From IMG/VR virus record IMGVR_UViG_3300033153_013152, positions 1-64,000 of that record: 64,000 nucleotides of DNA; one strand, 5' to 3'. The position numbers and the translations under genes were made by a program. The notes under the pieces are model-generated. The model searched no databases and was not told where the DNA came from. It was given only the letters and a program-made list of their open reading frames with translations. Shown here one piece after another: positions 6,084 to 35,738 of the stretch. The stretch's first letter is position 1, and the number at the start of each line of letters is the position of its first letter. The DNA is from a virus.

Positions 6084-6470
6084 TTAACAACTGCTACCTA
6101 GAATTGTAACATTACTCATTCGATCAAGAATCTCTTTGGTTCTTTCATCATAATATGAAATGCGAACAATAGCAAACTTATGTCCCCTATGTTTTTTCAT
6201 CTCTTCATTCCACTCAACATAATCTTCATAGTCTTCGTATGTCTCTTCACCATAACACCATTGTTCATTGATAAAGTCAAGAACTTCTTGCCTATTTCCA
6301 GACATATGAATACAAGTTTTATCTGAATCATATATCCTTGATTCATTTATGAATACATCTTCTATGGTTGTATCTTGTCTGCCACATACCTTACACTTAA
6401 TTGGTTTGGTATAAGCAATAAGAAAAGAAGAAGAACTACTATTTGAAACAAAACCATTTCTAGATTTCAT
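6084..6470 (-). CDS. GFVSNSSSSSF-tag protein with CxxC (128 aa)
   Basis: Begins MKSRNGFVSNSSSSSFLIAY, the N-terminal tag shared by five proteins here. After it comes a possible zinc site (CKVCG and later CIHM), a very acidic stretch (EETYEDYEDYVEWNEEM) and a basic C-terminus. The body is unlike the other tag proteins. The tag resembles neither a signal peptide nor a membrane segment. It lies directly upstream of the radical SAM gene. Confidence 0.75.
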   Translation of the reverse strand: MKSRNGFVSNSSSSSFLIAYTKPIKCKVCGRQDTTIEDVFINESRIYDSDKTCIHMSGNRQEVLDFINEQWCYGEETYEDYEDYVEWNEEMKKHRGHKFAIVRISYYDERTKEILDRMSNVTILGSSC

Positions 6471-6473
6471 AAT

Positions 6474-6728
6474 TCACCCCGCATGAAAGTCACAAAGTAT
6501 AACACCCTCTTCACCATCTGGTTTCAATTCTTTGCAAATTGAATAATCTGGATTCAACCAAAAATCTTTTTTGCCACAATTAACTTCATCTTCTCCATCA
6601 TGATTAGCTATTTCTCTAGCTCTTTGTTCAGTTTCTGCCTCAATTACAAATCCCCAACAACAATCATATGTACAAATTTCCCAACCTACATCTGTTGTTG
6701 GCTTAAGAATCCATAGTTTGTTTGCCAT
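6474..6728 (-). CDS. Conserved hypothetical protein (84 aa)
   Basis: Pattern W-I-L-K-P, YDCCWGFVIEAETEQRAREIA and a C-terminal GVILCDFHAG match a small phage family of unknown role. Four Cys residues are present but not in classic pairs. GAGGTAGG precedes ATG. It lies 3 nt upstream of the tag gene 6084-6470. Confidence 0.7.
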   Translation of the reverse strand: MANKLWILKPTTDVGWEICTYDCCWGFVIEAETEQRAREIANHDGEDEVNCGKKDFWLNPDYSICKELKPDGEEGVILCDFHAG

Positions 6729-6731
6729 AAC

Positions 6732-6935
6732 CTACCTCAAATACTCGTTAAAATACCATTCAAAACTTTCTGAATTTCCACCATCTTTTAGAATATAATC
6801 ATACACATTTCCAATTACTGTACCATCTTCGTCACCAAAAATACATTCTTTTTTCTCTCCTGGCTCAAATACAATATCTTCTTGTTCTACACTCTCAAGC
6901 AATTCTTCTTGAGTATAATCAAACCAATCATACAT
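6732..6935 (-). CDS. Acidic hypothetical protein (67 aa)
   Basis: A strongly acidic small protein (EELLESVEQEDIVFEPGEKKE) with no recognised domain. No clear Shine-Dalgarno is visible before the ATG, so the start is less certain than its neighbours. It lies between the tag mini-gene 6957-7067 and 6474-6728. Confidence 0.55.
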   Translation of the reverse strand: MYDWFDYTQEELLESVEQEDIVFEPGEKKECIFGDEDGTVIGNVYDYILKDGGNSESFEWYFNEYLR

Positions 6936-6956
6936 TGCGCAGAAATCAGCAACAAG

Positions 6957-7067
6957 CTATGGAGTTTCTTTTACGAAATCAACAATAGTTTTTCTTTCAT
7001 TTGTCTTATTGACAATAGTAAAACTACAAGATGAACTATTACTTACGAAACCCGATCTGATTTTCAT
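6957..7067 (-). CDS. GFVSNSSSCSF-tag mini-protein (36 aa)
   Basis: An ATG at 7067, overlapping the upstream stop as ATGA and preceded by AAAGGTGAAG, opens a 36-codon frame: MKIRSGFVSNSSSCSFTIVN, then a short basic tail ending KETP. It is almost nothing but the tag, with one Ser of the run changed to Cys. That makes it either a decayed family member or a minimal functional version. Confidence 0.7.
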   Translation of the reverse strand: MKIRSGFVSNSSSCSFTIVNKTNERKTIVDFVKETP

Positions 7068-7303
7068 TTCTTCACCTTTATCCAATAACCCATTTTAAAA
7101 TCATCTCTAATTCTTTTACTTGGCAATGGTATTGAACTATTTTTAATATATACATCTGAAAAAAATTCCCACTTTTCTTCTTTTGTTGATATTTTTGCAA
7201 ATGTTCCAGAAGCAGAAACGTGAGCATCATATTGTGGTATAGTATCTTTATCTATGTACCTACACAATTCTTTTTTCTTTTTTTCTTCTTGGGTGGTTGC
7301 CAT
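7064..7303 (-). CDS. Hypothetical protein (79 aa)
   Basis: A small Lys-rich protein (MATTQEEKKKKELCRYIDKD, then SASGTFAKISTKEEKWEFF). AAAGGGGTGG before the ATG supports the start at 7303 rather than the GTG three codons earlier. No recognised domain. It is coupled by ATGA to the tag mini-gene. Confidence 0.6.
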   Translation of the reverse strand: MATTQEEKKKKELCRYIDKDTIPQYDAHVSASGTFAKISTKEEKWEFFSDVYIKNSSIPLPSKRIRDDFKMGYWIKVKK

Positions 7304-7331
7304 TCTTTCCACCCCTTTACTTTAATTTCAC

Positions 7332-7550
7332 TCAACTTGAACTCCAAACACCATCTTTTTTGAATGTAGCATCCAAAATAATATTTCCATCTTCCCAATA
7401 CATTCTAACTTTTTTAATATTATCTGATGTTATTTCATCTACTTCCAAATCTTCTTTTGCATCATCTCCTAATTGATTAATAATAAATTGTTCAACTGTA
7501 TTTTTGGCTGTTTCTCCCAATTGAATTGTGCCTACATATGTTCTTCGCAT
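7332..7550 (-). CDS. Hypothetical protein (72 aa from first ATG)
   Basis: Reads MRRTYVGTIQLGETAKNTVE and later MYWEDGNIILDATFKKDG, a beta-rich small protein with no family I know. The start is uncertain: a strong GGAGG lies 20 nt before this ATG, and the only other in-frame initiator is a TTG at 7577 overlapping that GGAGG. A promoter (7592-7620) precedes it, so it is the first gene of its transcript. Confidence 0.55.
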   Translation of the reverse strand: MRRTYVGTIQLGETAKNTVEQFIINQLGDDAKEDLEVDEITSDNIKKVRMYWEDGNIILDATFKKDGVWSSS

Positions 7551-7591
7551 TGTTTTAGATATTATTATATCCTCCAAATTATATTAAGAAC

Positions 7592-7620
7592 ACTTTACAA
7601 TAAAAATTTACTATTGTCAA
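7592..7620 (-). promoter_or_regulatory. Sigma70-like promoter
   Basis: Minus-strand TTGACA (7615-7620), a 17-bp spacer and TAAAGT (7592-7597), pointing into the gene at 7332-7550 with GGAGG about 20 bp further downstream. Confidence 0.65.
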
Positions 7621-7688
7621 GTTTTATTTTTCATAGGAAGAGGTTCTTTTCTATATATTTCTGATACTATTTCTTTCAAAGAAACCAT
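7617..7688 (-). CDS. Possible micro-protein (23 aa)
   Basis: A 23-codon frame, MVSLKEIVSEIYRKEPLPMK plus three residues, with AAGGA 8 nt before the ATG and only 11 nt after the previous gene's stop. Its stop lies within the -35 box of the next promoter. Too short to judge by sequence; kept because spacing and ribosome site match the surrounding genes. Confidence 0.4.
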   Translation of the reverse strand: MVSLKEIVSEIYRKEPLPMKNKT

Positions 7689-7699
7689 TGTACTTTTCC

Positions 7700-7846
7700 T
7701 TAGTGATTTTTCAATTCTTCTATGAAATCAAAATAACCCACATCATCAAAATACTTTTTGGAATTGTTTTTTCTTTTGCTCTTTTTGTTTTTCTTGTTTT
7801 GCTTTTTTTTATTCCACTGCATTCTGCGAAAATCTTTGTCCTGCAT
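7700..7846 (-). CDS. Very basic small protein (48 aa)
   Basis: ATG at 7846, with GAAGGATT upstream, opens MQDKDFRRMQWNKKKQNKKN, then a Lys/Asn-rich run and a C-terminal YFDDVGYFDFIEELKNH. The extreme basic N-terminus suggests nucleic-acid or membrane-surface binding (inference). Confidence 0.55.
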   Translation of the reverse strand: MQDKDFRRMQWNKKKQNKKNKKSKRKNNSKKYFDDVGYFDFIEELKNH

Positions 7847-7867
7847 CACTACAATCCTTCTTTTTTA

Positions 7868-8185
7868 TTAATCTATTGTTATCTCTTGTGGTTTAGAACC
7901 ATTTTCATAAATACGAGATATATCTTTTTCTAATATTCCATTTTCTATTGCTTCTTTATAGGCCTCTACAAATTTTCCCCTAAATTCCAAACCATAAATA
8001 TTACCACACTCACATTTATACCAAGCTTCAATAAAATTACCATTTTCAGATATGCCATGATTATCCAATTTCATAATTTTATAGCACATAATACACTTTT
8101 CTTTAATGGGAATTTTTCCCAAAATCTTATTTTCATTTAGTCTTGATGGACTGTACGAATATGCTGGTTGTAGTTTTTTCGACAT
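7868..8185 (-). CDS. Zinc-ribbon hypothetical protein (105 aa)
   Basis: Cys pairs CIMC (near residue 31) and CEC (near 58) form a plausible CX2C...CXC zinc ribbon around a short acidic loop. Helices follow (KFVEAYKEAIENGILEKDI). AAAGGA precedes the ATG. Its 5' end overlaps the small gene 8137-8310 in another frame. Confidence 0.65.
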   Translation of the reverse strand: MSKKLQPAYSYSPSRLNENKILGKIPIKEKCIMCYKIMKLDNHGISENGNFIEAWYKCECGNIYGLEFRGKFVEAYKEAIENGILEKDISRIYENGSKPQEITID

Positions 8186-8310
8186 TTTTTCTTATTCCTT
8201 TCTTTTTTCTGATCTTTCATTGGACCAGAACGTCTGAAGTGAGCATTGACACAAATCCAATCCCTACCAAAATTTGATTTCGACTTCTTTTTGTTTTTTC
8301 TTTTTGTCAT
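8137..8310 (-). CDS. Small basic protein of a common phage family (57 aa)
   Basis: The frame MTKRKNKKKSKSNFGRDWIC, then VNAHFRRSGPMKDQKKERNK, matches a recurring small phage family with DW-x-V-x-x-HFR and a trailing K/R-rich tail. Function unknown. It overlaps the 3' end of 8264-8452 and the 5' end of 7868-8185, each out of frame. AGG about 9 nt before the ATG is a weak ribosome site. Confidence 0.6.
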   Translation of the reverse strand: MTKRKNKKKSKSNFGRDWICVNAHFRRSGPMKDQKKERNKKKCRKNYNQHIRTVHQD

Positions 8311-8452
8311 TTTTTCTGCCTACAATTCTGTACAACAATGCTGCACTACCAATTAGTATCCCTCCTGGGAAAAAAACCGCTGGAATTAAAAAAGACAATA
8401 TATCATTTCTCAATTTTTGCATCTTTGTTTGTGTTTTTGTGCAATAATACAT
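8264..8452 (-). CDS. Small single-pass membrane protein (62 aa)
   Basis: One hydrophobic segment (ILSFLIPAVFFPGGILIGSA) is followed by a very basic tail (GRKNDKKKKQKEVEIK), predicting a cytoplasmic C-terminus. AAGGAAATA precedes ATG. Small membrane proteins of this type in phages include lysis regulators and superinfection proteins, but nothing here decides. Confidence 0.6.
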   Translation of the reverse strand: MYYCTKTQTKMQKLRNDILSFLIPAVFFPGGILIGSAALLYRIVGRKNDKKKKQKEVEIKFW

Positions 8453-8473
8453 ATTATTTCCTTGTTATAATTA

Positions 8474-8824
8474 CTAACTATGTTTATCAATATACTCCAA
8501 AAGATATTTCAAAGTTGGTTTTGTTTCCCTTTCAATTTTCATTATACATTTTTTAGTTTCCAAGTCAACAACTTTAAAATAAGAAACGGCAGGTGTCCAT
8601 TTAATAATTGTTTTACAACACATTACATCTTCTCCTGCAATCGCCACATCAAACCATTTTGGTTTTTGATATCCTGCACAGAAAATCATGAATCTTCCAT
8701 CCATTACTAAATCATGCGGATCTTGTTCATTTAATTTAATACACTTATCTGATTTAATATAATCAATCAGATTAGCCTTCCATTGTTTCTGATCTTCAGT
8801 TAACTTTGGTTTCTTGCGTCCCAT
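8474..8824 (-). CDS. Hypothetical protein (116 aa)
   Basis: A globular alpha/beta protein with a basic N-terminus (MGRKKPKLTEDQKQWKANL) and a core VDLETKKCIMKIERETKP. No family recognised. The ribosome site is weak (GAAAGAAA). It sits 2 nt upstream of 8827's partner in a run of small accessory genes. Confidence 0.6.
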   Translation of the reverse strand: MGRKKPKLTEDQKQWKANLIDYIKSDKCIKLNEQDPHDLVMDGRFMIFCAGYQKPKWFDVAIAGEDVMCCKTIIKWTPAVSYFKVVDLETKKCIMKIERETKPTLKYLLEYIDKHS

Positions 8825-8826
8825 TG

Positions 8827-9015
8827 TTATTTCTTTCTGGACTTACATACAAATCTAATATTATTAATATGAATTTTGTCACCTTTATAATCAATAAAAT
8901 TATCTTTACAATTAATTCCTTCCAATGTCAATACTTTTTGTACGGTATGAGTACCGGCTTGTAGTCTTTTGTTGTTTGTCCAACTAATTTTAATTGGAAT
9001 TTTATTTGTTTTCAT
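8827..9015 (-). CDS. Hypothetical protein (62 aa)
   Basis: A basic, beta-rich small protein (IPIKISWTNNKRLQAGTHTV). AGGAG precedes the ATG at proper spacing. No motif recognised. It follows the lipoprotein gene 9029-9472 by 13 nt. Confidence 0.6.
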   Translation of the reverse strand: MKTNKIPIKISWTNNKRLQAGTHTVQKVLTLEGINCKDNFIDYKGDKIHINNIRFVCKSRKK

Positions 9016-9028
9016 TTTAATCTCCTAT

Positions 9029-9472
9029 TTATTTTGGACACTTGTCTGGAATTTTAATTCCAACAAAATCAGCATGTTCTGTTAATCTATGAATATTACA
9101 CTCTTCTTCTGTTGCTGTACCAACGTCTACAAATAAATCACCATATCCTTCAAATGTATTACCATCTGGAAATATTTTTACAGTAAACATTTGCTCGAAT
9201 AAACAATTATATTTATATTCTTTTTTTGATTTAAGAAATACAATACTATTTTCCTTTTCTTTTCCATCCACCTTTGTTGAGCCTCCCACTACTTCCATTT
9301 TATATTTACCATTGCTCTTATCTGTAATTTTCCAGGTAGCATCACTTTTTACGTTATATTGATTAAATAAAGTTTTGGCATATGTAATATCTACTTTATA
9401 ATAACCTTCATCAATCATACTTCCGCAAGAGCAACAGAAAGCAAATAGAATACATGCAATTAGATTTTTCAT
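9029..9472 (-). CDS. Predicted lipoprotein, paralogue of 36467-36916 (147 aa)
   Basis: Signal segment MKNLIACILFAFCCSC ends at a lipobox Cys. The mature part begins near GYYKVD and carries W-K-I-T-D-K-SNGKYKMEV, the same order of motifs as the lipoprotein at 36467 (GYYKVD, W-Y-I-M-E-K-TNGSYDI), so the two are probably paralogues. Two further Cys residues near residues 90 and 123 could pair. The start overlaps the previous stop (ATGA). Envelope location is predicted; function unknown. Confidence 0.75.
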   Translation of the reverse strand: MKNLIACILFAFCCSCGSMIDEGYYKVDITYAKTLFNQYNVKSDATWKITDKSNGKYKMEVVGGSTKVDGKEKENSIVFLKSKKEYKYNCLFEQMFTVKIFPDGNTFEGYGDLFVDVGTATEEECNIHRLTEHADFVGIKIPDKCPK

Positions 9473-9663
9473 TTCTTACTCCATTTTATACATGGTGGTT
9501 CTTTAGTAACTGGACTAGCACCCGAATACTTCTCTTTAGGACTATAATGAGGATGTCCTGGTGGAAAATGAAACACACCAGAAAGCCATTTTTCTACACC
9601 ACAATATTCACATACCCTTATTGTACCACTTTTTACCCATTTGTGTCCTCGTTTAGCCACCAT
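9469..9663 (-). CDS. Small CxxC zinc protein (64 aa)
   Basis: RVCEYCGVEKWL, followed much later by PPCIKW, matches a widespread small phage family with one CxxCG and a late PPC, presumably one zinc site. Function unknown. Start and stop overlap both neighbours (TAATG and ATGA), placing it between the RNA ligase and a lipoprotein gene. Confidence 0.7.
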   Translation of the reverse strand: MVAKRGHKWVKSGTIRVCEYCGVEKWLSGVFHFPPGHPHYSPKEKYSGASPVTKEPPCIKWSKK

Positions 9664-10601
9664 TATTCATTCTCCATTAGCCATTTCTTCCAAGCTTGAC
9701 ATGCTTTTTGGGTTATAATCTTATTATACACATTTGCTTCCTTGTTGTCCAATCTAACATACAATTCACCGAATTCTTTCTGTACATCCTTAATAAATTC
9801 CCTTAGAAATTCACCAGTTCTAGAAATCTTCATCTCTGGATTTCCACTATCTCTGGCAATATGATCAATAATTGTAGCTGTTCTACCCATAGTAACAATA
9901 CGATTAGCAAATTCATCAGCTTCATTTTGCAATGTCATTTCTTCTTCAGTTAATTTCTTTTCTTTCTTTGTCCTCACTTGCTCTACCCACTTTTTAGATT
10001 TATATTTGGCCATCATCCAATTGCCCCTACGATCTCTTTGCATCTTTAGTGCCTTAATTACAAATCCTTCTTGGATATTATCTGGTTTATCAAATCCATT
10101 CTTAGCACCAGTTGGAGTTACTTGATCAATTATCTTATTTAGTTCCTCTAGAGTAACAATACCTCTCATAATTTCAGGCACTGTTTCTACTCCAACTTCA
10201 TTGCAAATACTTACAACATCATCCCAATCTAGATAATTGCCATCTGGATCTCTAATATCAAAAACAGCAATGTCTTTGTGATCTTTGTATTCTATTCCTT
10301 TTTGCACTCCAAACCCATATACTTCACCATAAAAAGTATAGTTTACATACTTTTCTTTTATCTTTTCCCACATCTTTGGCATACTCAAAAGAATATGTAC
10401 AGAATTATAATGGGCATTATTCATTTGTCCATCTTTGAAAACAACATTGTTTCTTGAACCAATAACAATACCATGAACTTCATTGTAACTAAAACGTAAA
10501 TTGCTACCATGTAGTTTTTCTTGCACCACACACTTATGATTCAACACTTCACAGTTTTTACCTAGACCTGAGATGCTGGAATACTTTTTGAAGAATTTCA
10601 T
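9663..10601 (-). CDS. RNA ligase, Rnl2-type (312 aa)
   Basis: The nucleotidyltransferase signature is clear: EKLHGSN near residue 28 supplies the Lys that is adenylated (KxxG motif I); FYGEVYG near residue 90 is motif III; EGFVIK near residue 180 is motif IV; MAKYKSKKW near 198 is motif V. The C-terminal domain is helical and charged. Family members seal 3'-OH/5'-phosphate ends in RNA, often tRNA cut by host defences. The window also has an Rnl1-type ligase, a P-loop kinase and an RlaP-like gene, which fits a repair role. Confidence 0.9.
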   Translation of the reverse strand: MKFFKKYSSISGLGKNCEVLNHKCVVQEKLHGSNLRFSYNEVHGIVIGSRNNVVFKDGQMNNAHYNSVHILLSMPKMWEKIKEKYVNYTFYGEVYGFGVQKGIEYKDHKDIAVFDIRDPDGNYLDWDDVVSICNEVGVETVPEIMRGIVTLEELNKIIDQVTPTGAKNGFDKPDNIQEGFVIKALKMQRDRRGNWMMAKYKSKKWVEQVRTKKEKKLTEEEMTLQNEADEFANRIVTMGRTATIIDHIARDSGNPEMKISRTGEFLREFIKDVQKEFGELYVRLDNKEANVYNKIITQKACQAWKKWLMENE

Positions 10602-10855
10602 TCGTTTTCCTCCCAGGTTATATTAAGACCCAAATGTCCATTATAAATTCCTAACCTTTCCTCAACACAATAATCTAACATTTCCAAAACACTAATGATT
10701 TTATCATAAGCTTCTCTTCCAAATCCCGATGGAAACTCATAATAAAGATCGAAATGCCCAAAATTGGCTCTCTTTTCTATTTCTTCGTTTATCTTATTCA
10801 AATATTCCATTTTTGATTTTTCAACCAATTCTCTGGCTTCTTTTGCGTCAATCAT
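10598..10855 (-). CDS. Hypothetical protein upstream of RNA ligase (85 aa)
   Basis: Helical N-terminus (IDAKEARELVEKSKMEYLNK) and an aromatic C-terminal half ending ITWEENE. It resembles small jumbo-phage proteins with IxAKEARE, function unknown. GGAG stands 5 nt before ATG and directly follows a long hairpin (10867-10945) that may control access to it. It overlaps the ligase start by 4 nt. Confidence 0.65.
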   Translation of the reverse strand: MIDAKEARELVEKSKMEYLNKINEEIEKRANFGHFDLYYEFPSGFGREAYDKIISVLEMLDYCVEERLGIYNGHLGLNITWEENE

Positions 10856-10866
10856 TTTTTCTCCAT

Positions 10867-10945
10867 AGAAGGTGGGCTCGGGAGTGAGTAGTAGGAATTT
10901 CTTCAGTCATACTAAACACTGCAGAGCCCTATATGATAACCTTCT
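10867..10945. ncRNA. Long rod-like hairpin in a leader region
   Basis: A 79-nt inverted structure fills most of the 99-bp gap. Outer stem AGAAGGT/ACCTTCT (10867-10873 with 10939-10945), second stem GGGCTC/GAGCCC (10874-10879 with 10924-10929) with a one-sided 9-nt bulge, then AGTG/CACT and TAGTA/TACTA separated by a 2x2 loop, 22 pairs in all, and a 16-nt apical loop. On the minus strand it starts 9 nt after a stop codon and ends a few nt before the GGAG of the next gene. There is no U tract, so it is not a standard terminator. Cis-regulatory RNA or processing site is inferred. Confidence 0.6.
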
Positions 10946-10954
10946 GTTGCGCAA

Positions 10955-11395
10955 TTAAATCTCTCGAATTTGACCCTCTTTCATAGCTTCTTGAACAAAA
11001 ACACGCTCTGAATCAGTAAGACCATCCTCGGAAACCGTTTCGACTTCATCAACTTCATCGGTTTCATTTCGTTCTGCTTCAACTGCTTCCGCCTCTGGAA
11101 CATCAGTTGGCTCATTTGCACCAAGAACCTCATCAAATGGAATTTCAGTACTATCAAACTCGCCATTAGCAAGAGACATGAGATCACTTGCCATTGCAGC
11201 AATGTCCTCTCGACTGAGCATACCAAAATCAGCGTTCCAACGCTCTTTGCCATAATTGCCCACATCAGCAAAACTAACGCCAAACCTACCATTGCCATCA
11301 CTATAAGCAAACAACCTCAAATGACCCTTTCCACCACGCTTAACCTTGTCTCCTGCCTTACTAGTAGCACCATTACTCTTAAGAACTGTCAACAT
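10955..11395 (-). CDS. Acidic-tailed hypothetical protein (146 aa)
   Basis: N-terminal part MLTVLKSNGATSKAGDKVKR is basic and Gly-rich; the C-terminal 50 residues are almost all acidic (EAEAVEAERNETDEVDEVE). Codons are noticeably richer in G and C than in neighbours. Such basic-plus-acidic layouts occur in DNA mimics and abundant structural proteins, but no family is recognised. AAAGGCG before the ATG fixes the start inside a longer TTG-initiated frame. A promoter (11443-11471) drives it. Confidence 0.65.
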   Translation of the reverse strand: MLTVLKSNGATSKAGDKVKRGGKGHLRLFAYSDGNGRFGVSFADVGNYGKERWNADFGMLSREDIAAMASDLMSLANGEFDSTEIPFDEVLGANEPTDVPEAEAVEAERNETDEVDEVETVSEDGLTDSERVFVQEAMKEGQIREI

Positions 11396-11442
11396 TGTCT
11401 TCGCCTTTCTTTGTTTGAGTTTAATTCCCAATGTCTGATACT

Positions 11443-11471
11443 AACTTAACATTGAATTTAAAAAGTGTCAA
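11443..11471 (-). promoter_or_regulatory. Sigma70-like promoter
   Basis: Minus-strand TTGACA (11466-11471), a 17-bp spacer and TAAGTT (11443-11448) in the gap upstream of 10955-11395. Confidence 0.6.
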
Positions 11472-11480
11472 GAAGAAAAT

Positions 11481-12970: not shown

Positions 12971-12989
12971 ATTTTCTTACCATTTCATA

Positions 12990-13724: not shown

Positions 13725-13745
13725 ACTTTTTCTCCAATATATGTT

Positions 13746-13772: not shown

Positions 13773-13788
13773 CAAAGGGAAGAGAAAA

Positions 13789-15201: not shown

Positions 15202-15211
15202 ACATTAACTC

Positions 15212-16143: not shown

Positions 16144-16494
16144 TCAATCTCCATGAATCTCAAATTGATCTTCAGTTAATCCTATTTGTCTTAAAAACCA
16201 TTTCATATTAAAATTATCCATTGTGGTCCAACCTTCAACAGTATCTTCTTTTTCTTCTATTTCCCAAGTAGCTTGACAACAAAGATCAAAGCTCCAATAG
16301 TTATACATATCTTTTTTATCCAATTCTTCAAAATCATAAACATCTTCTACTGTCTTGTTCATACTATCTTCAAACATCTTTGCCAACTCACCATGATTTT
16401 TAATACATTCAATTTGAAATGGTGTTAGATATTTCTTTTGAACAACAAAAGAAGAAGATGAACTATTACTTACAAAACCTGATCTAAATTTCAT
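16144..16494 (-). CDS. GFVSNSSSSSF-tag protein (116 aa)
   Basis: Begins MKFRSGFVSNSSSSSFVVQK. The remainder is acidic and helical (FQIECIKNHGELAKMFEDSM, then DVYDFEELDKKDMYNYWSFD) and does not resemble the bodies of the other tag proteins. Its ATG overlaps the stop of the SPOUT methylase gene (ATGA). Confidence 0.75.
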   Translation of the reverse strand: MKFRSGFVSNSSSSSFVVQKKYLTPFQIECIKNHGELAKMFEDSMNKTVEDVYDFEELDKKDMYNYWSFDLCCQATWEIEEKEDTVEGWTTMDNFNMKWFLRQIGLTEDQFEIHGD

Positions 16495-26276: not shown

Positions 26277-26300
26277 CTTAACCTCCTAATAAATAGTTAT

Positions 26301-26528: not shown

Positions 26529-27100
26529 TTTATTCCAGATCTCTTTAATATATTTATACCCTCTAAATCTTCCAAATATTCATTTTCATAATAAACCTCT
26601 GAAATTGCTTTAGTATTTATTATTCTTCTTGCACACATTTTACAAGGATTATAAGTAACATATAATTTACTACCCTTATTTATTGTCGGATCAAATTTAA
26701 TAATACAATTTTCTTCTGCATGTATAAAACCAGATTTTCCGGTATCCATTGAATCTCTTTTGTTTGTTCCCCCGATTTCATCTCCATTATATCCTGGATA
26801 TAATACACCAAATGGTGTGACTATTACAGCACCAATTTTATATTTGGGATCTTTACTTTCTTTAGCAAATTCTGCAGCTATTCTTAAATATAATTTGTGA
26901 ATTTTCAATTCTTTATTTTCTTTTTCTTCTTTTTTTTTCATTAAACTATCTGAACATCTGCACTTATGTTTTTCACAAGCCCTATATCCTTTACAAGTAT
27001 CATATATTGCTTCATTATTACATATTTCTACTTTTGGTTCATCATCCCAAATTGGATCTCCAATATCAAACCAACCACATTTTTCTTTTTCATTAGGCAT
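26510..27100 (-). CDS. dCMP-deaminase-like protein with N-terminal Cys cluster (196 aa)
   Basis: HAEENCIIKFDP (about residue 130) and NPCKMCARRIINT (about 158) are the HAE and PCxxC zinc sites; AAEFAKESKDPKYKIGAVIV and GGTNKRDSM match deoxycytidylate deaminases. The first 55 residues add an extra Cys-rich region (ICNNEAIYDTC, ACEKHKCRC), probably a structural zinc. It would turn dCMP to dUMP. It overlaps the IMPDH/GMPR gene end by 8 nt. The start ATG has only a weak GAGAGA upstream. Confidence 0.8.
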   Translation of the reverse strand: MPNEKEKCGWFDIGDPIWDDEPKVEICNNEAIYDTCKGYRACEKHKCRCSDSLMKKKEEKENKELKIHKLYLRIAAEFAKESKDPKYKIGAVIVTPFGVLYPGYNGDEIGGTNKRDSMDTGKSGFIHAEENCIIKFDPTINKGSKLYVTYNPCKMCARRIINTKAISEVYYENEYLEDLEGINILKRSGIKCERIG

Positions 27101-28109
27101 GAAACAATCTCTCAATCTTTGCAGAATTAGATAATAGCACAAAATCTTCATCTGGTAAATACTTAAAATCTGACAAATATTTACAATTCATATATGACAT
27201 TGCAGATCTAAATGCTTCTCCCAATGAATGCCAAAATACTTCAACTGAACCAGTATATGGAATTAGCGTATCATCTCCCTCAATATTTTTTTTACTTTTC
27301 TTTACCGCATATGAAGTTTGACCCCCATATTGCTTATACAATTTTTCATTGAATTTCACAACTGGTCCAGGACTTTCTTTGCACGAAGCAAATAATTTAC
27401 CCGAAATAATTCCATCACATCCCAAAGCAATTGCCTTAACACAATCTGCAGTTCCTTTAACTGAACCATCACAAATAATTGCTGGACCACATCCACCCGT
27501 AATAACATTTCTATAGGTAGCAATTTCTCTAATCAATGTAGCTTGTCCCACACCAATAGAAGTTTTGGCCGAAGTAAGACAAATAGAACCATTTCCTATT
27601 CCTAACCTTACCCCATCTACTCCTAAATCAGCAAGAAATTTATATCCCTCAACACTAGCCACATTACCCGCAACAAGATAAGTACCAGGATATCCTTTCC
27701 TTATTTCTTTTATTGCAGTCTCAACTACAGAATTAAATCCATTTGCCGTATCAATATTGAAATATCTTATGCCCAAATCAAACGCATATAGAAATGGCTC
27801 TTCAAAATCTTTTGCCGGAATTGATACAAAAAAATCTCCCAATCCCTTATCGATCAAATGTTTAATAATTCTAGCATCATAATATTTATCATCACTTCTT
27901 GGTAAAAATCCTATACCACCAAGTTCATCCATCTTTTCAACCATTCTCTCTCCAGTAACCAATTTCATTGGAGAGGGAAAAATTGGCAAACTCATTTCTA
28001 AACAACCAAAAAGATAAGAGATAGTTTGAACACCTGTTCTACTTTCAATTTCTGATTTCTTATTTGGTCTCAATCCAATGTCATCAAATGAATAAGTTTG
28101 TTTAAACAT
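27093..28109 (-). CDS. IMP dehydrogenase / GMP reductase family enzyme (338 aa)
   Basis: A TIM-barrel protein without CBS domains. YSFDDIGLRPNKKSEIESRT opens it as in both enzymes; GNGSICLTSAKTSIGVGQ (about residue 175) holds the catalytic Cys; ICDGSVKGTADCVKAIALG and GKLFASCKESPG are the phosphate-binding parts; IEGDDTLIPYTGSV is the late flap. Lack of CBS domains and the ~340-aa length recall GMP reductase, while KESPG is closer to IMPDH, so direction is undecided. With PurA and PurB nearby it may link GMP to AMP synthesis. AGGAG precedes ATG. Confidence 0.82.
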   Translation of the reverse strand: MFKQTYSFDDIGLRPNKKSEIESRTGVQTISYLFGCLEMSLPIFPSPMKLVTGERMVEKMDELGGIGFLPRSDDKYYDARIIKHLIDKGLGDFFVSIPAKDFEEPFLYAFDLGIRYFNIDTANGFNSVVETAIKEIRKGYPGTYLVAGNVASVEGYKFLADLGVDGVRLGIGNGSICLTSAKTSIGVGQATLIREIATYRNVITGGCGPAIICDGSVKGTADCVKAIALGCDGIISGKLFASCKESPGPVVKFNEKLYKQYGGQTSYAVKKSKKNIEGDDTLIPYTGSVEVFWHSLGEAFRSAMSYMNCKYLSDFKYLPDEDFVLLSNSAKIERLFHA

Positions 28110-28117
28110 ATATTCTC

Positions 28118-31100: not shown

Positions 31101-31513
31101 AGGTTCTTTAAACCTTCTTGATTGTAAGCCAATAAAACCAAATGATGTCTTCTATTAATTGGATCTAATAGTTTAGATTTAGATTCATCTTCATTTTCTA
31201 TTACAACTTCATCTTTTTCTTTTTTCTTTTTCTTGTTCTGTAAATTTTCTTTAACAATTTTCCAATCTTCAAAACTTGGAATGTAATAAGTTTCAACTCC
31301 ATAGATGCACTTGAATGGAATTCCTTTATCTTTTAGTTTCTTTTGTTGTTGGTATAAATAACCATATGCTCCAGCAGTTCCATGATCAGTTAAAGAATAT
31401 GCCATAGAATCTTCACCAGCATTTTCTAATATAAAATTAATATAATCTGCCGGATACCCTAAAGCATCAAAAATAGATAATGTTGTATGCGAATGTAAAT
31501 TTACATATTTCAT
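28118..31513 (-). CDS. dnaE: DNA polymerase III alpha subunit, DnaE-type (1131 aa)
   Basis: The N-terminal PHP domain keeps its metal motifs (NLHSHTTLS, TDHGTAGAYG, TSDAHYPT), so a PHP proofreading nuclease could be active. GPARGSAAGSLVCYLIDIT (about residue 420) and DFPDVDIDVSNRD carry the polymerase motif with the catalytic Asp pair. GFISYGFNKSHSISYSYIS and a helix-hairpin-helix-like SIKGIGKIAA follow, in DnaE order. Length matches bacterial DnaE. A bacterial-type replicase in place of a family B enzyme is notable for a phage. The start overlaps the upstream stop (ATGA). Confidence 0.93.
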   Translation of the reverse strand: MKYVNLHSHTTLSIFDALGYPADYINFILENAGEDSMAYSLTDHGTAGAYGYLYQQQKKLKDKGIPFKCIYGVETYYIPSFEDWKIVKENLQNKKKKKEKDEVVIENEDESKSKLLDPINRRHHLVLLAYNQEGLKNLYRLISSSYIEGFYRFPRIDFNLLEKYNKGLILSTACIQGFPSYLVQKIKNNEPGISDQNIIKIAQNQFSKHLEPILNMFEGRSYLELQFNALEEQKLVNLALIEYAKNNGHQLIVTSDAHYPTPDHWKHREIYKALGWQRKGEKINVEVLDKKIDDLKCLLYPHNGDQIYGAYKKYQPELPEEIVREAIERTYVIAHEYIEQIDPGSKPKLPKIEGSFERLKRLTIEGLKRRGLDKNKKYVDRAIFELKVIREKDFSQYFIVLHEAIRELRKELFLGPARGSAAGSLVCYLIDITQLDPIKHGLLFERFLSISRADFPDVDIDVSNRDIAIEILIDYFGKSKVSYVSNYSTLQLKSLVKDISKLHDINFQEVNEVTKIMEVEARRKILDEIGGDQKLYQFTFEGARKHSPTFRQYLNKYPEVAEYIEKLYGQVRATSCHAGGTILCENIIEDMPVIKSKGKIQTPWTEGLNARHLEQMGLVKYDFLGVATLRMMERCVELIAGEYNIKEFYDKHLHPDVINTNDQNVYENVFWNRKFVNIFQFTEIPVQKFINQIVPTKIDDISACTSTFRPGPLSGNADKKLLENRGKHINYEHPILEKILGPTNNCLIYQEQFMQLANKLAGFELDEADKLRKILMKPSHELGEELKKKRLEAREKFVSGCIKKGIEYDRAVSLWDEDIVGFISYGFNKSHSISYSYISFQCAWLMTYYEKEWIQACLEVDEDRDKIIQDISYIGYKFQKPDIIKSVDTWKVDGKKIYPAISSIKGIGKIAARELMKTREHQGQFNDLFDFFYDEDGNWRWSKFNKKCLERFIMVEGLDSLGCVGHGKMFDNYRHMFEVISNNFDPIKKMKLDLREAAAECDDKRDYTKQQKINIQRDVLGYYDKGLLFDQKLLDILLEYDVLPLADLSDGTHLHWFIVKEIKRKLTRNNNLYLNMKISDIDDRIRYLNYFGGGQEDIKENCVYVAPLFVNNRGFISVQWGRELIEASQIV

Positions 31514-31857
31514 TTTCTTGTTATGGGATAATGTTCACCCAAAAATTCACGTAATATAGTTGCAATTGCAGGAAGAAGAAATACTTGTTTTAAAACCTCA
31601 CCATCTTTTTTCCAATAATGACCTTCTCGCAAAGAATAACATACTTCACATTTTCTAGAACAATTTCCCGGCATAACAAAATGTTTTATGACTCTCATTG
31701 CATTCTTTAGGGAACAACATTTAGAACAAATATTGTTATTTTTGCAATATTTTCCACGAATATGATTTTTTGATTTTTCTGTACTTTTTCTTGCATCAAC
31801 ACAAGATTTGTGTTCCATACAACCATTTTTATAATTTGGACATTCATACCATTTCAT
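31510..31857 (-). CDS. Cys-rich hypothetical protein (115 aa)
   Basis: Thirteen Cys residues in the first 75 (CPNYKNGC, CKNNNICSKCC, CSRKCEVC) indicate two or more zinc sites. The C-terminus is hydrophobic helix (LLPAIATILREFLG). No family recognised. AGGAT precedes ATG; it sits immediately upstream of dnaE and overlaps its start. Confidence 0.65.
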   Translation of the reverse strand: MKWYECPNYKNGCMEHKSCVDARKSTEKSKNHIRGKYCKNNNICSKCCSLKNAMRVIKHFVMPGNCSRKCEVCYSLREGHYWKKDGEVLKQVFLLPAIATILREFLGEHYPITRK

Positions 31858-31858
31858 T

Positions 31859-32044
31859 TTAAAATCCTAAAAAATTTTTAATTGTTAAACCAACAAAATA
31901 ACCAAAAATACCAGAACACAATAACAAATATATAATATTTATCTTATCTATTTTATCTTGTTTTCTTTTTAAATTGTTTATTCTCTTCCACCGTTCTACA
32001 TTAATTTTATTGTTTAATCTTTTATTTATACTTTCTTCATACAT
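31859..32044 (-). CDS. Small tail-anchored membrane protein (61 aa)
   Basis: A basic N-terminal half (NKRLNNKINVERWKRINNLK) is followed by one transmembrane segment (INIIYLLLCSGIFGYFVGLT) near the C-terminus. GAGG precedes ATG. Codon 18 (31991-31993) is CGG and appears to be read as Arg, since a shift there would end the protein. Confidence 0.6.
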   Translation of the reverse strand: MYEESINKRLNNKINVERWKRINNLKRKQDKIDKINIIYLLLCSGIFGYFVGLTIKNFLGF

Positions 32045-32480
32045 ATTTTTTTACCTCAAACAAAAGATTTGTGCCAAATGTCCAATATTTAAAAAAATAT
32101 TTATTTTCTAACCATGTTGCAACCATTTCACAATCAGGAAGATTTTTAATCAAAATCATTCCTTTGTGATCACAACAACTAATCAAACGATTAATTACTA
32201 CCAATGGTTCATTTCCAAATAAATATCTATCATATTCGCATACAATTTTATCATACGCCCCTTCATCTAAACCATCAATTGAATCTACAAATTTAACATC
32301 TAAAAATTCTTTTTGCAAAGAATGTCTCAAATTGTTATTTAATTCGGCCACAACAATTCCTGAAACTGAATTGCAAATCCAAGGAATCACATCATTGCTT
32401 CTTTCGTTACCAACATAACAAAAGAAATCAGTTGTCTTTAGATTCACTTGATTAGAAATTGTTTCGTGCATTACTGACAT
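32037..32480 (-). CDS. Hypothetical protein, faint methyltransferase-like pattern (147 aa)
   Basis: CNSVSGIVVAELNNNLRHSL, then YDKIVCEYDRYLFGNEPLVV and GMILIKNLP, have the strand-helix order of a class I SAM fold, but the Gly-rich SAM loop is missing, so this is at best a degenerate or remote member. GGAGAAATAA before ATG supports the start. Confidence 0.5.
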   Translation of the reverse strand: MSVMHETISNQVNLKTTDFFCYVGNERSNDVIPWICNSVSGIVVAELNNNLRHSLQKEFLDVKFVDSIDGLDEGAYDKIVCEYDRYLFGNEPLVVINRLISCCDHKGMILIKNLPDCEMVATWLENKYFFKYWTFGTNLLFEVKKYV

Positions 32481-32489
32481 TTATTTCTC

Positions 32490-32903
32490 CTAATATTCTG
32501 AACTACATTCTATAACCAAAAAATCAATATCCTTCAAATCAATATCTACATTATAATACTTTTTGATTCTATTTTGCAACTCTTTTTTAATTTCTGATAC
32601 AATCATATCTTTTTTCAAAAAAGATTCTGCATTAAACCCTATAATTCTATTTTCCATTCCAAAAGTACAAATTTCACTTTTATTTGGAGCTTTATAAACA
32701 CCATATCCATTTTCTACAAAATTTTTTCCTCCACCATAATATTCATATTCCAATCTTTCATCAAATTCTTTTGGAATTTCTAAAACTTTAGCTAATTTTT
32801 TCCAACTATTATTTTCATTTGGATAATTTTCATATCTATTTACACCAACAACAACATAAGAACTACTTGAACTATTTGATACGAAACCTGCTCTTACCTT
32901 CAT
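32490..32903 (-). CDS. GFVSNSSSSSY-tag protein (137 aa)
   Basis: Begins MKVRAGFVSNSSSSSYVVVG, the tag with Tyr in place of the final Phe. The remainder (YENYPNENNSWKKLAKVLEI, then FGMENRIIGFNAESFLKKD) is an alpha/beta protein unlike the other tag proteins. AAGGAG precedes ATG. It is directly downstream of purA. Confidence 0.75.
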   Translation of the reverse strand: MKVRAGFVSNSSSSSYVVVGVNRYENYPNENNSWKKLAKVLEIPKEFDERLEYEYYGGGKNFVENGYGVYKAPNKSEICTFGMENRIIGFNAESFLKKDMIVSEIKKELQNRIKKYYNVDIDLKDIDFLVIECSSEY

Positions 32904-32904
32904 T

Positions 32905-33996
32905 TTATATCTCCTTCATCAACTTTCTATCTGCACCAGTTGATACATATTTAACCTTGACATTAACATAATCTTGAACCATTTGCAACAAAAAATCAAT
33001 ATCAGGTTTTATAGTAACATACTGTGGAACACATCTATCATATTGATATTTCATATATGGAATAGTATTCAAAAATTTATCATTTAATTTATAAAAAGTG
33101 CATACTTTTATTGAATCTAAATCTTGAATTACATCAAATTTAGTTAAAGCTAAACTAGTACAACCATTAATTCTAATTGCATAATTCAATGCAGGTAAAT
33201 CTAACCATCCAACCTTTCTTCTTCTTCCTGTTGTTGCACCAAATTCATCACCAATCCTTACAATATGATCATCATATTTTTCATCTTCAATTAAAGTTGG
33301 AAATGGACCTACGCCAACTTTTGTAAGATATGGTTTAAAAACACCAACAACCTCACGAACTTTAGTTGGACCTATTCCTGCAGAAGAGCAGGCTGCACCA
33401 GCTACATTTGTTGTTGTAGAAATATTTGGATATGTAGTTCCATGATCAATATCCAAAAGAGTACCTTGTGCTCCTTCAAAAATAATAGTTTTTCCTTCGT
33501 CATTTAATTTATTAATTTCATATGGAACATCACAATAATAAGATTCAAAATCTTTTAGAGATTCTATTCTTATTCCTTTCCTCCCATATTTGTCAGAAGA
33601 ACATGGTGACATTCCTCTCTTAGTTGAACCGACGCCATTTTCTGTATTTTCTGCAACACAATCTCTTTCTACATGATTGTTTGTTATTACATGACAATCT
33701 GGAGATATTTTCAAATTATTACTTACATCATAACCACAACTTTTAATTTCCTCTATTTCTTTAGCCAAACTCTCTGCACTAATTAAAACTGATGATGCCA
33801 AATATGATTTTTTATTTGATAAAATACCTGCTGGTATAAGATGTAATTTGAATTTATCATTTCTAATTACAACTGTATGGCCTGCATTTGGACCACCTGA
33901 AAATCTTACACATGCATCAGCTTTTTGCATGAGATAATCAACTATTTTTGCTTTGCCTTCGTCTCCAGATTGAAGACCAACAACTATTTTAATCAT
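32905..33996 (-). CDS. purA: Adenylosuccinate synthetase (363 aa)
   Basis: GLQSGDEGKAKIVD near the N-terminus is the GTP/IMP-binding loop, keeping the catalytic Asp, although the usual aromatic residue before it is Ser. FSGGPNAGHTVV is the second signature; IFEGAQGTLLDIDHGTTYP, ATTGRRRKVGWLD and TKFD are further conserved blocks. It is shorter than E. coli PurA (432 aa), like archaeal and phage forms. It joins IMP and Asp using GTP; purB lies immediately upstream and overlaps it by 8 nt. The kept Asp argues against a PurZ (2-aminoadenine) enzyme. Start at M7 follows AAGGAAAAG. Confidence 0.92.
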   Translation of the reverse strand: MIKIVVGLQSGDEGKAKIVDYLMQKADACVRFSGGPNAGHTVVIRNDKFKLHLIPAGILSNKKSYLASSVLISAESLAKEIEEIKSCGYDVSNNLKISPDCHVITNNHVERDCVAENTENGVGSTKRGMSPCSSDKYGRKGIRIESLKDFESYYCDVPYEINKLNDEGKTIIFEGAQGTLLDIDHGTTYPNISTTTNVAGAACSSAGIGPTKVREVVGVFKPYLTKVGVGPFPTLIEDEKYDDHIVRIGDEFGATTGRRRKVGWLDLPALNYAIRINGCTSLALTKFDVIQDLDSIKVCTFYKLNDKFLNTIPYMKYQYDRCVPQYVTIKPDIDFLLQMVQDYVNVKVKYVSTGADRKLMKEI

Positions 33997-35140
33997 TTTC
34001 TTTTCCTTGGACAATCCTATATGCTTCTTGTCTACCTTTACCTTCCCTTATTAGTTCCAATAATTTACCTTGAGAATCTGAATATTTTTCTAAATTTTTA
34101 TTTATATTATCAAAATTAAATTCTATATTTTCAAATATGTATATGACACGTTTCAACATAAAATGTAACAAATTGAAAGCATCAGGGAAAATAATTCTTT
34201 CAACTGACGAATGAGATATATCTCTTTGATCCCACAAAGAAATATTTTCCATTGCTGGCTGCACATAACTTCTCATTATTCTTGCCAAACCACTTATATT
34301 CTCACAAAGAATTGGATTTCTCTTGGTTGGCATAGCAGAAGAACCTGTTTGTTTTTTGTCAAATGGTTCATATATTTCTTCAATTCCCGACTGTTGATGA
34401 AGTCTAATTTGAAGAACCATCTTTTCTAAACTACTTGCTAATAAAGCCATATTTGCAATTAAACGAGCATATGATTCTCTTGGTACAACTTGAGTTGTTT
34501 CGCAATAACGCAACCCAAGTCTACACAAAATATCAACTTCATTTGAACGAGAAATGTATTTATTATCCCCTACTGCTCCAGAAATTTTTCCACATACAAT
34601 ATCATCACATAAATGATATTCGTGATTTACCATATCTTGTGCAAACACCCTAAACATTCTTTTCAACAAAATTGGTTCAGCATGTTGCCCATGGGTTCTA
34701 CCCATTATCTTTGTGCCATCTACTTTCTTTGGCAATTCATCAAAAAATATCAATCTCAATTTATTATAAGATTTGTGTAATATGTCTAATGAATCTCTAA
34801 TTGCAATTGCATTTCCTGTATCAACAATATCAGAAGATGTTAATCCATAATGAATAAATCTACCATCACTATCAGCTTTAGAAATAAAATTTTCCAATGT
34901 AAATACAAATGCATTTACATCATGATGAATTTCTTTTTCTAATTCTTTAGAATCATGAATTACGAAAGAAACATATCTATCCAACAATTTATCAAAATGA
35001 ATAGACAAATCATTGGAAGGAATAACCTTTTGTTCTTGCAATACATCATTAACTGTTTTTTCTATTTCTATCCAACGTTTATATTTTCCTCTTTCACTCC
35101 AAATTTTCTCCATTTCTGGTGTAGAATACCTTTCAATCAT
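33989..35140 (-). CDS. purB: Adenylosuccinate lyase (383 aa)
   Basis: TGSSAMPTKRNPILCE (about residue 265) is the fumarase/aspartase superfamily signature; IHHDVNAFVF and GRTHGQHAEP carry the two catalytic His regions; SSDIVDTGNA fits substrate binding. Somewhat shorter than bacterial PurB. It releases fumarate from adenylosuccinate to give AMP. Order purB-purA with an 8-nt overlap marks one operon, a complete IMP-to-AMP path. Confidence 0.92.
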   Translation of the reverse strand: MIERYSTPEMEKIWSERGKYKRWIEIEKTVNDVLQEQKVIPSNDLSIHFDKLLDRYVSFVIHDSKELEKEIHHDVNAFVFTLENFISKADSDGRFIHYGLTSSDIVDTGNAIAIRDSLDILHKSYNKLRLIFFDELPKKVDGTKIMGRTHGQHAEPILLKRMFRVFAQDMVNHEYHLCDDIVCGKISGAVGDNKYISRSNEVDILCRLGLRYCETTQVVPRESYARLIANMALLASSLEKMVLQIRLHQQSGIEEIYEPFDKKQTGSSAMPTKRNPILCENISGLARIMRSYVQPAMENISLWDQRDISHSSVERIIFPDAFNLLHFMLKRVIYIFENIEFNFDNINKNLEKYSDSQGKLLELIREGKGRQEAYRIVQGKEND

Positions 35141-35276
35141 CTAATTCACCAAAATATTTTTCTATTTTCTTATCCCTTCTTTTACTCAAAAATGAAAACA
35201 ATCCAATTGTAAATGCAATTATACCACCATATACAATCAAAAACCCAACTAAAAATTCTAACATTCCATCAAACAT
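35133..35276 (-). CDS. Small membrane protein (47 aa)
   Basis: MFDGMLEFLVGFLIVYGGII begins a long hydrophobic helix followed by a basic-acidic tail (KRRDKKIEKYFGELDD). The ATG begins one base after the stop of the 26-aa gene 35278-35358, implying coupled translation. Function unknown. Confidence 0.55.
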   Translation of the reverse strand: MFDGMLEFLVGFLIVYGGIIAFTIGLFSFLSKRRDKKIEKYFGELDD

Positions 35277-35277
35277 A

Positions 35278-35358
35278 TTATTCACTAAAGTTGTGATATA
35301 TACTTCCTGCAGTCCAACCAATTACAATTCCTATTAGTGTCCAGAATATGACTTGCAT
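35278..35358 (-). CDS. Micro membrane protein (26 aa)
   Basis: MQVIFWTLIGIVIGWTAGSI plus six residues is one hydrophobic helix. The ATG shares a base with the stop of the tag gene upstream (TGATG) and has CAGGA 7 nt before it, the arrangement of real genes here. It and the next gene may form a two-component membrane pair. Confidence 0.5.
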   Translation of the reverse strand: MQVIFWTLIGIVIGWTAGSIYHNFSE

Positions 35359-35738
35359 CAATATCCTGCTTCAGAAAAGATTACTTCTACATCATCACTC
35401 TCAATGTCATTTAATCCTCTGTGACACAACATATATTCTTCTGGTTCAGTTTCATCGCAAAAAGAACCAAAGTGAACAATTTTTCCTTCCTCAATTGCTT
35501 TTTTTGGTGCACACCACTCTTTCCAATTCCAATCTCCCTTATTTGGAATTTCTCCACCCCATTTTTGATAATGAGCAATAAGCTCTTCTAGAGTACTAAT
35601 TGACTTATCAACATAATCAGACAAATCAACTTCAATAATAAATTTAACTTTACTATTCATATTGTCGCCTTTGTTCTTTGTAGCAACAACAAAAGAAGAA
35701 GAACTGCTATTACTTACAAAACCATTTCTTGACTTCAT
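35358..35738 (-). CDS. GFVSNSSSSSF-tag protein (126 aa)
   Basis: Begins MKSRNGFVSNSSSSSFVVAT. The body is acidic alpha/beta (VKFIIEVDLSDYVDKSISTL, then IEGKIVHFGSFCDETEPE) and ends EVIFSEAGY. AGGAAATATT precedes ATG and a good promoter (35762-35790) stands upstream, so this is the first gene of the purB-purA-containing transcript. Confidence 0.75.
   Translation of the reverse strand: MKSRNGFVSNSSSSSFVVATKNKGDNMNSKVKFIIEVDLSDYVDKSISTLEELIAHYQKWGGEIPNKGDWNWKEWCAPKKAIEEGKIVHFGSFCDETEPEEYMLCHRGLNDIESDDVEVIFSEAGY

What the first reader, a model, noticed from the sequence alone, without database searches (positions are those of the whole stretch)
6084..35738. A common N-terminal tag GFVSNSSSSSF on five otherwise unrelated proteins
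Genes at 6084-6470, 6957-7067, 16144-16494, 32490-32903 and 35358-35738 begin MK-x-R-x-GFVSNSSSS(S/C)S(F/Y), after which the sequences are unrelated and even differ in size (36 to 137 aa). Such a shared leader on different bodies suggests targeting, co-processing or modification of the Ser run rather than one enzymatic family. I recall similar starts in other large phages and some bacteria, without an accepted function.
Basis: partly seen in the sequence, partly recalled or inferred. Interest (0 to 1): 0.75.

Follow-up and report, generated by a model that had tools for sequence, protein, structure and literature searches.

The report
N-terminal tag for a radical-SAM enzyme
A large phage and many relatives put the same 16-residue start (MKxRxGFVSNSSSSSF) on otherwise unrelated small proteins, and wherever that tag occurs there is nearly always one particular radical-SAM enzyme, so the tag is most likely the place where this enzyme docks on and chemically modifies all these proteins: an apparently undescribed protein-modification system shared by phages, bacteria and archaea.

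Summary
In detail: five tagged genes in the window, all on the - strand, always at the start codon, with a sixth copy elsewhere in the 186-kb myophage genome. The six bodies fall into six different sequence families. One correction: gene B is not 36 aa; an in-frame TAG interrupts a 111-codon gene. The key lies next to gene A: window 4957-6072(-) encodes a radical-SAM/SPASM protein. Linkage was tested three ways. (1) Tag first: this enzyme family is the one recurrent neighbour (86 loci, 46 of 62 cellular ones). (2) Enzyme first: 57 of 59 viral records contain tagged genes, up to 12 each. (3) Body first: 36 of 36 homologues of two bodies carry the tag. In sequenced isolates (RB43, RB16, KP27 and kin) enzyme and tagged genes co-occur almost perfectly. 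Variant tags (SL-, DF/DY-, GH-VSNSS) change together across unrelated bodies within a genome, and the D variant matches one enzyme clade. Best explanation: the tag is the recognition and probable modification site of this enzyme. Chemistry and purpose are not shown. Related cellular operons pair a tagged protein with an Avs-like STAND NTPase. Neither family has an assigned function in PHROGs; the motif is in no paper held here.

The parts
6423..6470 (-). Tag of gene A: MKSRNGFVSNSSSSSF (16 codons)
6084..6470 (-). Tagged gene A, 128 aa, Cys-containing body (body family 12, 'CxxCGRxD')
4957..6072 (-). Radical-SAM/SPASM protein, 371 aa, start 11 nt downstream of gene A's stop; proposed tag-recognising/modifying enzyme; phrog_7293
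   Evidence: A1-profile E=9.5e-144, only copy in the genome; SPASM TIGR04085 26.0 bits (cutoff 27), Pfam SPASM 17.6 bits (cutoff 21.5); AF2 pLDDT 92, pTM 0.91; Foldseek to TigE, CteB, anSMEcpe
5848..5898 (-). [4Fe-4S]/SAM Cys motif C59-x12-C72-x2-C75-Y-K-S-N (extended first spacing)
   Evidence: alignment A1
7020..7067 (-). Tag of gene B: MKIRSGFVSNSSSCSF
6732..7067 (-). Tagged gene B, 111 codons, interrupted by in-frame TAG at codon 37 (relatives have Gln); body family 9
16447..16494 (-). Tag of gene C: MKFRSGFVSNSSSSSF
16144..16494 (-). Tagged gene C, 116 aa, body family 0
32856..32903 (-). Tag of gene D: MKVRAGFVSNSSSSSY
32490..32903 (-). Tagged gene D, 137 aa, body family 16 (remotely family 2)
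35691..35738 (-). Tag of gene E: MKSRNGFVSNSSSSSF
35358..35738 (-). Tagged gene E, 126 aa, body family 1, also found as the tagged protein of bacterial STAND-NTPase operons; AF2 model has no secondary structure in residues 1-23

Best explanation
MKxRxGFVSNSSSSSF is a recognition tag read in trans by one dedicated radical-SAM/SPASM enzyme per genome (here 4957-6072). Proposed steps: (1) the enzyme binds the unstructured N-terminus of each tagged protein, mainly through K2, R4 and the G-F-V part (inferred from conservation and co-variation); (2) it cleaves SAM to a 5'-deoxyadenosyl radical that abstracts a hydrogen from a residue of the near-invariant V-[S/T]-N-S-S core (inferred from the enzyme family); (3) this leaves a changed residue or crosslink in the tag, e.g. 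an oxidised or epimerised Ser/Asn or an intra-tag C-C or ether link (unknown which); (4) the same modified N-terminus is thereby placed on many small, mostly acidic proteins whose differing bodies set what each does. The genetic linkage of tag and enzyme is shown; direct binding, the chemistry and the purpose are inferred.
For: Tag first: in 180 loci fetched by tag, this rSAM family is the only widespread neighbour (86 loci, 46 of 62 cellular ones); of 48 further viral records with no rSAM in the fetched piece, 25 have it elsewhere. Enzyme first: of 59 viral loci found by rSAM alone, 52 have tags within 10 kb, 220 of 221 tags on its strand, and 5 of the other 7 have tags elsewhere in the record. 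Body first: 36 of 36 homologues of two body families found without the tag carry it. Isolates: rSAM in 172 phage records, two tagged proteins in 174 and 175, with matching organism counts, although in KP27 the genes lie about 20 kb apart. Co-variation: same-genome pairs sharing a non-consensus residue 6 number 69 (maximum of 10,000 shuffles 17), residue 7: 27 (maximum 10), with one tag per body family per genome; the three D-tag rSAMs form a 100%-supported clade. Gene pairs often overlap by about 4 nt. Closest sequences and folds are peptide/protein-modifying rSAM-SPASM enzymes: SkfB, SuiB, TigE, CteB, anSME, ChlB.
Against: No modification has been observed. Some tag-bearing records lack the enzyme (23 of 48, including records of 214 and 250 kb; 8 of 16 genomes), though many are fragments. 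The first Cys spacing is unusual (Cx12CxxC here; Cx7Cx6C in one clade), and the second SPASM cluster site is degenerate in many members. Co-variation could reflect recognition by another factor; three of the five variant genomes were looked at because the standard motif was missing, which favours the test.
Confidence: 0.82

Rival explanations
1. The tag is only a docking leader: the enzyme binds it but modifies residues in the bodies, as RiPP leaders guide enzymes to a downstream core.
For: K2 and R4 are 99% conserved and look recognition-like; in many rSAM RiPP systems the leader is not the modified part (established knowledge).
Against: The bodies are many unrelated families with no shared target motif, while the V-S-N-S-S core is more invariant than docking alone needs: N and the first S never varied in 221 enzyme-selected tags (N was required by the search).
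Confidence: 0.12
2. The tag is an address for another partner (virion packaging, membrane or assembly site), and the radical-SAM gene is merely a frequent neighbour.
For: T4-type capsid-targeting sequences are a known case of one N-terminal tag on unrelated phage proteins; vWA proteins also recur beside tagged genes (clusters 3 and 32).
Against: The tag also occurs in bacterial and archaeal operons whose one common neighbour is the rSAM; enzyme and tags stay together when 20 kb apart; no other gene family recurs nearly as often.
Confidence: 0.05
3. The tag is the conserved part of a single protein family whose bodies have diverged beyond recognition.
For: A few body families are remotely related (11-14 at 97%, 2-16 at 87%, 1-4 at 72% hhalign probability).
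Against: The other 150 pairs are below 30% probability; bodies include zinc-site, LRR and 549-811 aa proteins. Common descent alone would not make tag variants change together within a genome across dispersed genes.
Confidence: 0.06

Closest known systems
Radical-SAM/SPASM peptide maturases (SkfB, CteB, SuiB, PqqE, TigE, ChlB)
   Same: Same superfamily fold and Fe-S architecture; nearest PDB relatives by profile and by predicted structure; encoded beside their presumed substrates
   Different: Presumed substrates are complete proteins of about 80-800 aa, up to 12 per genome with unrelated bodies, sharing only the first 16 residues; no leader peptidase or exporter recurs nearby; extended first Cys spacing
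Anaerobic sulfatase-maturating enzymes (anSME)
   Same: Radical-SAM/SPASM enzymes that modify a residue (Cys/Ser) of a full-size protein; among the best structural matches (4k39)
   Different: anSME acts on a C/S-x-P/A-x-R motif inside sulfatases; here the conserved site is N-terminal, lacks that motif, and no tagged protein is a recognised sulfatase
One-leader/many-core RiPP systems (nif11/NHLP-type leaders)
   Same: One enzyme serves many genome-encoded substrates sharing an N-terminal segment
   Different: There the C-terminal core is a short natural product released from the leader; here the bodies are protein-sized
FxSxx peptides with rSAM-SPASM in vWA/AP-ATPase conflict systems (Kaur et al. 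2020, PMC7159879)
   Same: rSAM-SPASM predicted to modify a conserved motif, in operons with NTPase conflict modules; vWA proteins also recur near tagged phage genes
   Different: Their motif is in the C-terminal part of processed peptides; GFVSNSS-type N-terminal tags were not found in any held paper
T4 capsid-targeting sequences on internal proteins
   Same: One short N-terminal tag on several unrelated phage proteins
   Different: Phage-only, and removed by a prohead protease; this tag also occurs in cellular operons and pairs with an rSAM enzyme

Membership tests
Radical SAM superfamily | Three-Cys [4Fe-4S]/SAM motif (canonical Cx3Cx2C) | tested here: met
   C59-x12-C72-x2-C75 in the window protein, so three Cys but a longer first spacing; other members have Cx3 to about x25 CxxC, or Cx7Cx6C in one cellular clade
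Radical SAM superfamily | Partial TIM-barrel fold | tested here: met
   AF2 pLDDT 92.4, pTM 0.91; 74 PDB hits at E<=0.001, the top ones radical-SAM enzymes
SPASM subfamily | C-terminal Fe-S domain (Cx9-15Gx4C ... Cx2Cx5Cx3C) | tested here: inconclusive
   Window has Cx12Gx4C and Cx2Cx5Cx2C; TIGR04085 26.0 bits against cutoff 27, Pfam SPASM 17.6 against 21.5; degenerate in other members
Peptide/protein-modifying rSAM maturase | Modification of a cognate peptide or protein | not testable with these tools
   Needs reconstitution and mass spectrometry; only co-occurrence and co-variation shown
RiPP biosynthesis | Short precursor with leader cleaved from a core, peptidase/transporter in cluster | tested here: not met
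   Median tagged protein 134 aa, range 51-811; no recurrent peptidase or transporter recognised among neighbour clusters
anSME substrate | C/S-x-P/A-x-R motif in a sulfatase | tested here: not met
   Motif absent from the tag; no sulfatase among 100 tagged representatives in Pfam
T4-type capsid targeting sequence | Found on capsid-internal phage proteins, removed by prohead protease | tested here: inconclusive
   Tag occurs in cellular operons with NTPase/rSAM neighbours, which does not fit; cleavage and virion location not tested
Avs/STAND antiphage system (cellular operons only) | STAND NTPase related to Avs | tested here: met
   Avs2 models hit 5 of 7 NTPases tested, E 3e-16 to 6e-25, over the NTPase region only
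Avs/STAND antiphage system (cellular operons only) | Protects against phage | not testable with these tools
   Needs plaque assays

The most novel reading that the evidence does not exclude
The radical-SAM-modified tag is a shared chemical group, reactive or docking, carried by dozens of unrelated effector-like proteins and used on both sides of phage-host conflict: by phages as sets of up to 12 tagged proteins, and by bacteria in operons joining an Avs-like STAND NTPase, a tagged protein homologous to a phage one (window gene E) and the enzyme.
Probability: 0.3. Interest if true: 0.95.

Novelty: new variant of a known kind. Interest (0 to 1): 0.86.

Why it matters
If right, this would be a general N-terminal protein-modification tag in prokaryotes and their viruses, with one enzyme and many unrelated protein substrates, spread over phages, Firmicutes, spirochaetes, Asgard archaea and others. 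It would give dozens of 'hypothetical protein' families a common biochemistry and put an anaerobic radical enzyme into phage takeover and possibly bacterial defence. It can be tested now in an old laboratory phage: RB43, an Escherichia phage, carries the enzyme family and two tagged proteins.

Tried and rejected
Genetic-code reassignment to explain gene B: rejected as genome-wide, since TAG ends 17 long ORFs. DNA-level repeat: rejected, because Ser codons mix TCN and AGY and body homologues always keep the peptide. Direct tblastn with the tag alone failed in phages, probably through low-complexity filtering. Bodies of C, E and the sixth copy have no match in isolate phages. Foldseek of protein E gave nothing significant. 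Pfam on 100 tagged representatives gave only LRR hits in one. Literature: no held paper contains the motif letters; nothing found linking rSAM to phage protein tags. An aromatic crosslink starting at F7 is unlikely, because F7 becomes L in 4 of 4 tags of L242 and H in 4 of 4 of G048. Two attempts to search with broad body alignments failed for lack of conserved stretches and were repeated with closer sequences.

Full report
What is there. A degenerate pattern for this start matches 5 times in the window and never in 100 shuffles. The window is part of a 185,961-base virus record, 30% GC; tail-sheath, DNA polymerase, helicase and ribonucleotide-reductase genes mark it as a large myophage. A sixth tagged gene lies at 137,444(-), with a Cys-rich body. 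Gene B is not a 36-aa peptide: its frame continues after one TAG at codon 37 to 111 codons, and relatives have Gln there.

The tag is selected as protein. Serine positions 9 and 11-15 use both serine codon boxes, which single-base changes cannot interconvert silently. The tag is always at a start codon; apparent internal copies are over-extended ORFs with M directly before the tag. From loci chosen by the enzyme rather than the tag, the consensus is M-K99-[ITV]-R99-x-G94-F96-V95-S99-N-S100-S100-S90-S80-S94-F96-[IV]-[IV] (N was required by the scan). In the AlphaFold model of protein E, residues 1-23 have no secondary structure and low confidence (mean pLDDT 58 for residues 1-10), as expected for a free tail.

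The bodies differ. Of 432 tagged proteins, the bodies form 107 BLAST clusters; among the 18 clusters of four or more members, one pair is clearly related by profile comparison, two more possibly, the rest not. The six tagged proteins of this phage belong to six families: A 12, B 9, C 0, D 16 (remotely 2), E 1, sixth copy 3. Pfam recognises almost none of 100 representatives. Bodies are strongly acidic: median pI 4.54 against 6.74 for other ORFs of the same viral loci. Only protein E was modelled, so shared folds without sequence similarity are not excluded.

The partner. Clustering all neighbours of tagged genes in 180 fetched loci gave one dominant family, present in 86 loci: a ~350-aa radical-SAM/SPASM protein. 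In the window it is the gene at 4957-6072(-), 11 bases downstream of tagged gene A's stop, and the only copy of that family in the genome. It has C-x12-C-x2-C-Y-K-S-N and a SPASM-like C-terminus. Its model is confident (pLDDT 92.4, pTM 0.91). The best structural matches are enzymes that modify peptides or proteins: TigE, CteB, anSME and ChlB; by profile, SkfB and SuiB.

Testing the link. Tag first: 46 of 62 cellular and 40 viral loci have the enzyme in the fetched stretch. Of 48 viral records without it there, 25 have it elsewhere; of 16 cellular genomes without it nearby, 8 have it elsewhere. Enzyme first: a scan of viral contigs with the enzyme profile, whose search pattern contains no tag, found 59 loci; 52 have tagged genes within 10 kb, 221 in all and 220 on the enzyme's strand. 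Five of the other seven have tags elsewhere in the record; the last two are fragments of 50 and 35 kb. The profile was built from tag-adjacent enzymes and some of these records overlap with the tag-first set, so the tests are not fully independent. Body first: two body families searched without the tag gave 36 homologues, all tagged; three were missed by the automatic rule but read GFVGNSS or FVTNSNSS. In isolates, the enzyme is in 172 phage records and the two tagged proteins of RB16 in 174 and 175, with nearly the same organism counts. These are related phages, so this counts as few independent events. In KP27 the tagged genes lie 20 kb from the enzyme, so close physical linkage does not explain retention.

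Co-variation. In some phages all tags read differ from the norm in the same way although bodies and positions differ: MxR[NT]DFVSNSS in G051 (at least nine copies, three regions), DYVSNSS/DFVSNSS in G052 and L249, SLVSNSS in L242, G/C-HVSNSS in G048. Keeping one tag per body family per genome, same-genome sharing of non-consensus residues far exceeds 10,000 shuffles at positions 6 and 7. The enzymes of the three D-tag phages form one fully supported clade, as do those of the three VTNSS-type cellular loci in the tree. This is what recognition of all tags by one cognate factor predicts. Three of the five variant genomes were inspected because the standard motif was missing, so the shuffle test is somewhat favoured.

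Mechanism. I infer that the enzyme binds the tag and modifies a residue in it. The least variable positions are R4, V8, N10 and S11; S12, S13, S15 and F16 are nearly so, while positions 3, 5 and 14 vary. F7 can be L, Y or H, which argues against chemistry needing an aromatic ring there. The product cannot be told from sequence: oxidation, epimerisation, and C-C or ether crosslinks are all known from this enzyme class (general knowledge). That the tag is only a docking leader is the main rival.

Cellular homologues. A recurrent operon in Firmicutes, Verrucomicrobia, Campylobacterota and others is NTPase - 130-aa protein - tagged protein - enzyme (the last two groups lack a recognised 130-aa homologue by BLAST). 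Five of the seven NTPases tested hit Avs2 models of antiphage STAND proteins. The tagged protein of these operons is in the same family as window gene E. A second cellular class pairs the enzyme with 549-811-aa tagged proteins and, in five loci, a further conserved protein. This suggests, but does not show, a role in phage-host conflict.

Known or new. The enzyme matches PHROGs family phrog_7293 and the tag phrog_7397, both 'unknown function'. No NCBIfam equivalog fits the window enzyme, and some isolate records already call it 'radical SAM protein'. No held paper contains the motif; most subscription papers and preprints are not held, so priority is not certain. The nearest published idea is radical-SAM modification of FxSxx peptides in vWA/NTPase conflict systems (PMC7159879). 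I file this as a new variant of radical-SAM peptide modification. It is not a RiPP system, because its substrates are proteins and no leader-release or export genes recur.

Noticed in passing
window 6957-7067 / 6732-7067: In-frame TAG at codon 37 of tagged gene B where relatives have Gln: nonsense mutation, local readthrough or sequencing error.
   Followed up: partly
L136, L143, L147, L153, L154, L160, L161, L170, L177, L183, L189, L193 and others: Conserved cellular operon: Avs-like STAND NTPase with an apparent N-terminal membrane anchor - 130-aa protein - tagged protein - radical-SAM. The tagged proteins of the Firmicutes operons end in Trp. Possible undescribed defence system.
   Followed up: partly
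L058:8585-10331, L020:3661-4662, L167:1-924: The radical-SAM gene appears split by an intein inserted at the third Cys of the active-site motif ('...HN|CYKSN'); read by eye from the alignment.
   Followed up: no
L141, L142, L156, L157, L175, L184: Very large tagged proteins (549-811 aa), most with a hydrophobic stretch directly after the tag; five of the six loci also hold a conserved 121-329 aa protein.
   Followed up: no
L080, L082, RB43 69755-71974 (RB43ORF119c), L115:4469-5134: vWA-type proteins recur next to tagged genes in about ten viral loci, including RB43, where the two tagged genes flank one.
   Followed up: no
window 32905-35140 and 27093-28109: Phage purA- and purB-like genes lie between tagged genes D and E; 27093-28109 looks like an IMP dehydrogenase (by eye). 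Possible purine or base-modification pathway.
   Followed up: no
G000:157896 (-): A second radical-SAM-type motif (GCPYQCTFC) in a 421-codon frame; not the tag-associated family.
   Followed up: no
tagged bodies in all loci: Tagged bodies are unusually acidic (median pI 4.5 against 6.7 for neighbouring viral ORFs).
   Followed up: partly
alignments A4/A6 (body family 4): Conserved ...FEYSDNDG...LEHGGIF..L.H..IS.H suggests a metal-binding or catalytic site in one tagged family.
   Followed up: no
G043 (RB43) 92778-93816 (-): The radical-SAM match in RB43 falls into two pieces in different frames, so its gene may carry a frameshift or sequencing error in that record.
   Followed up: no
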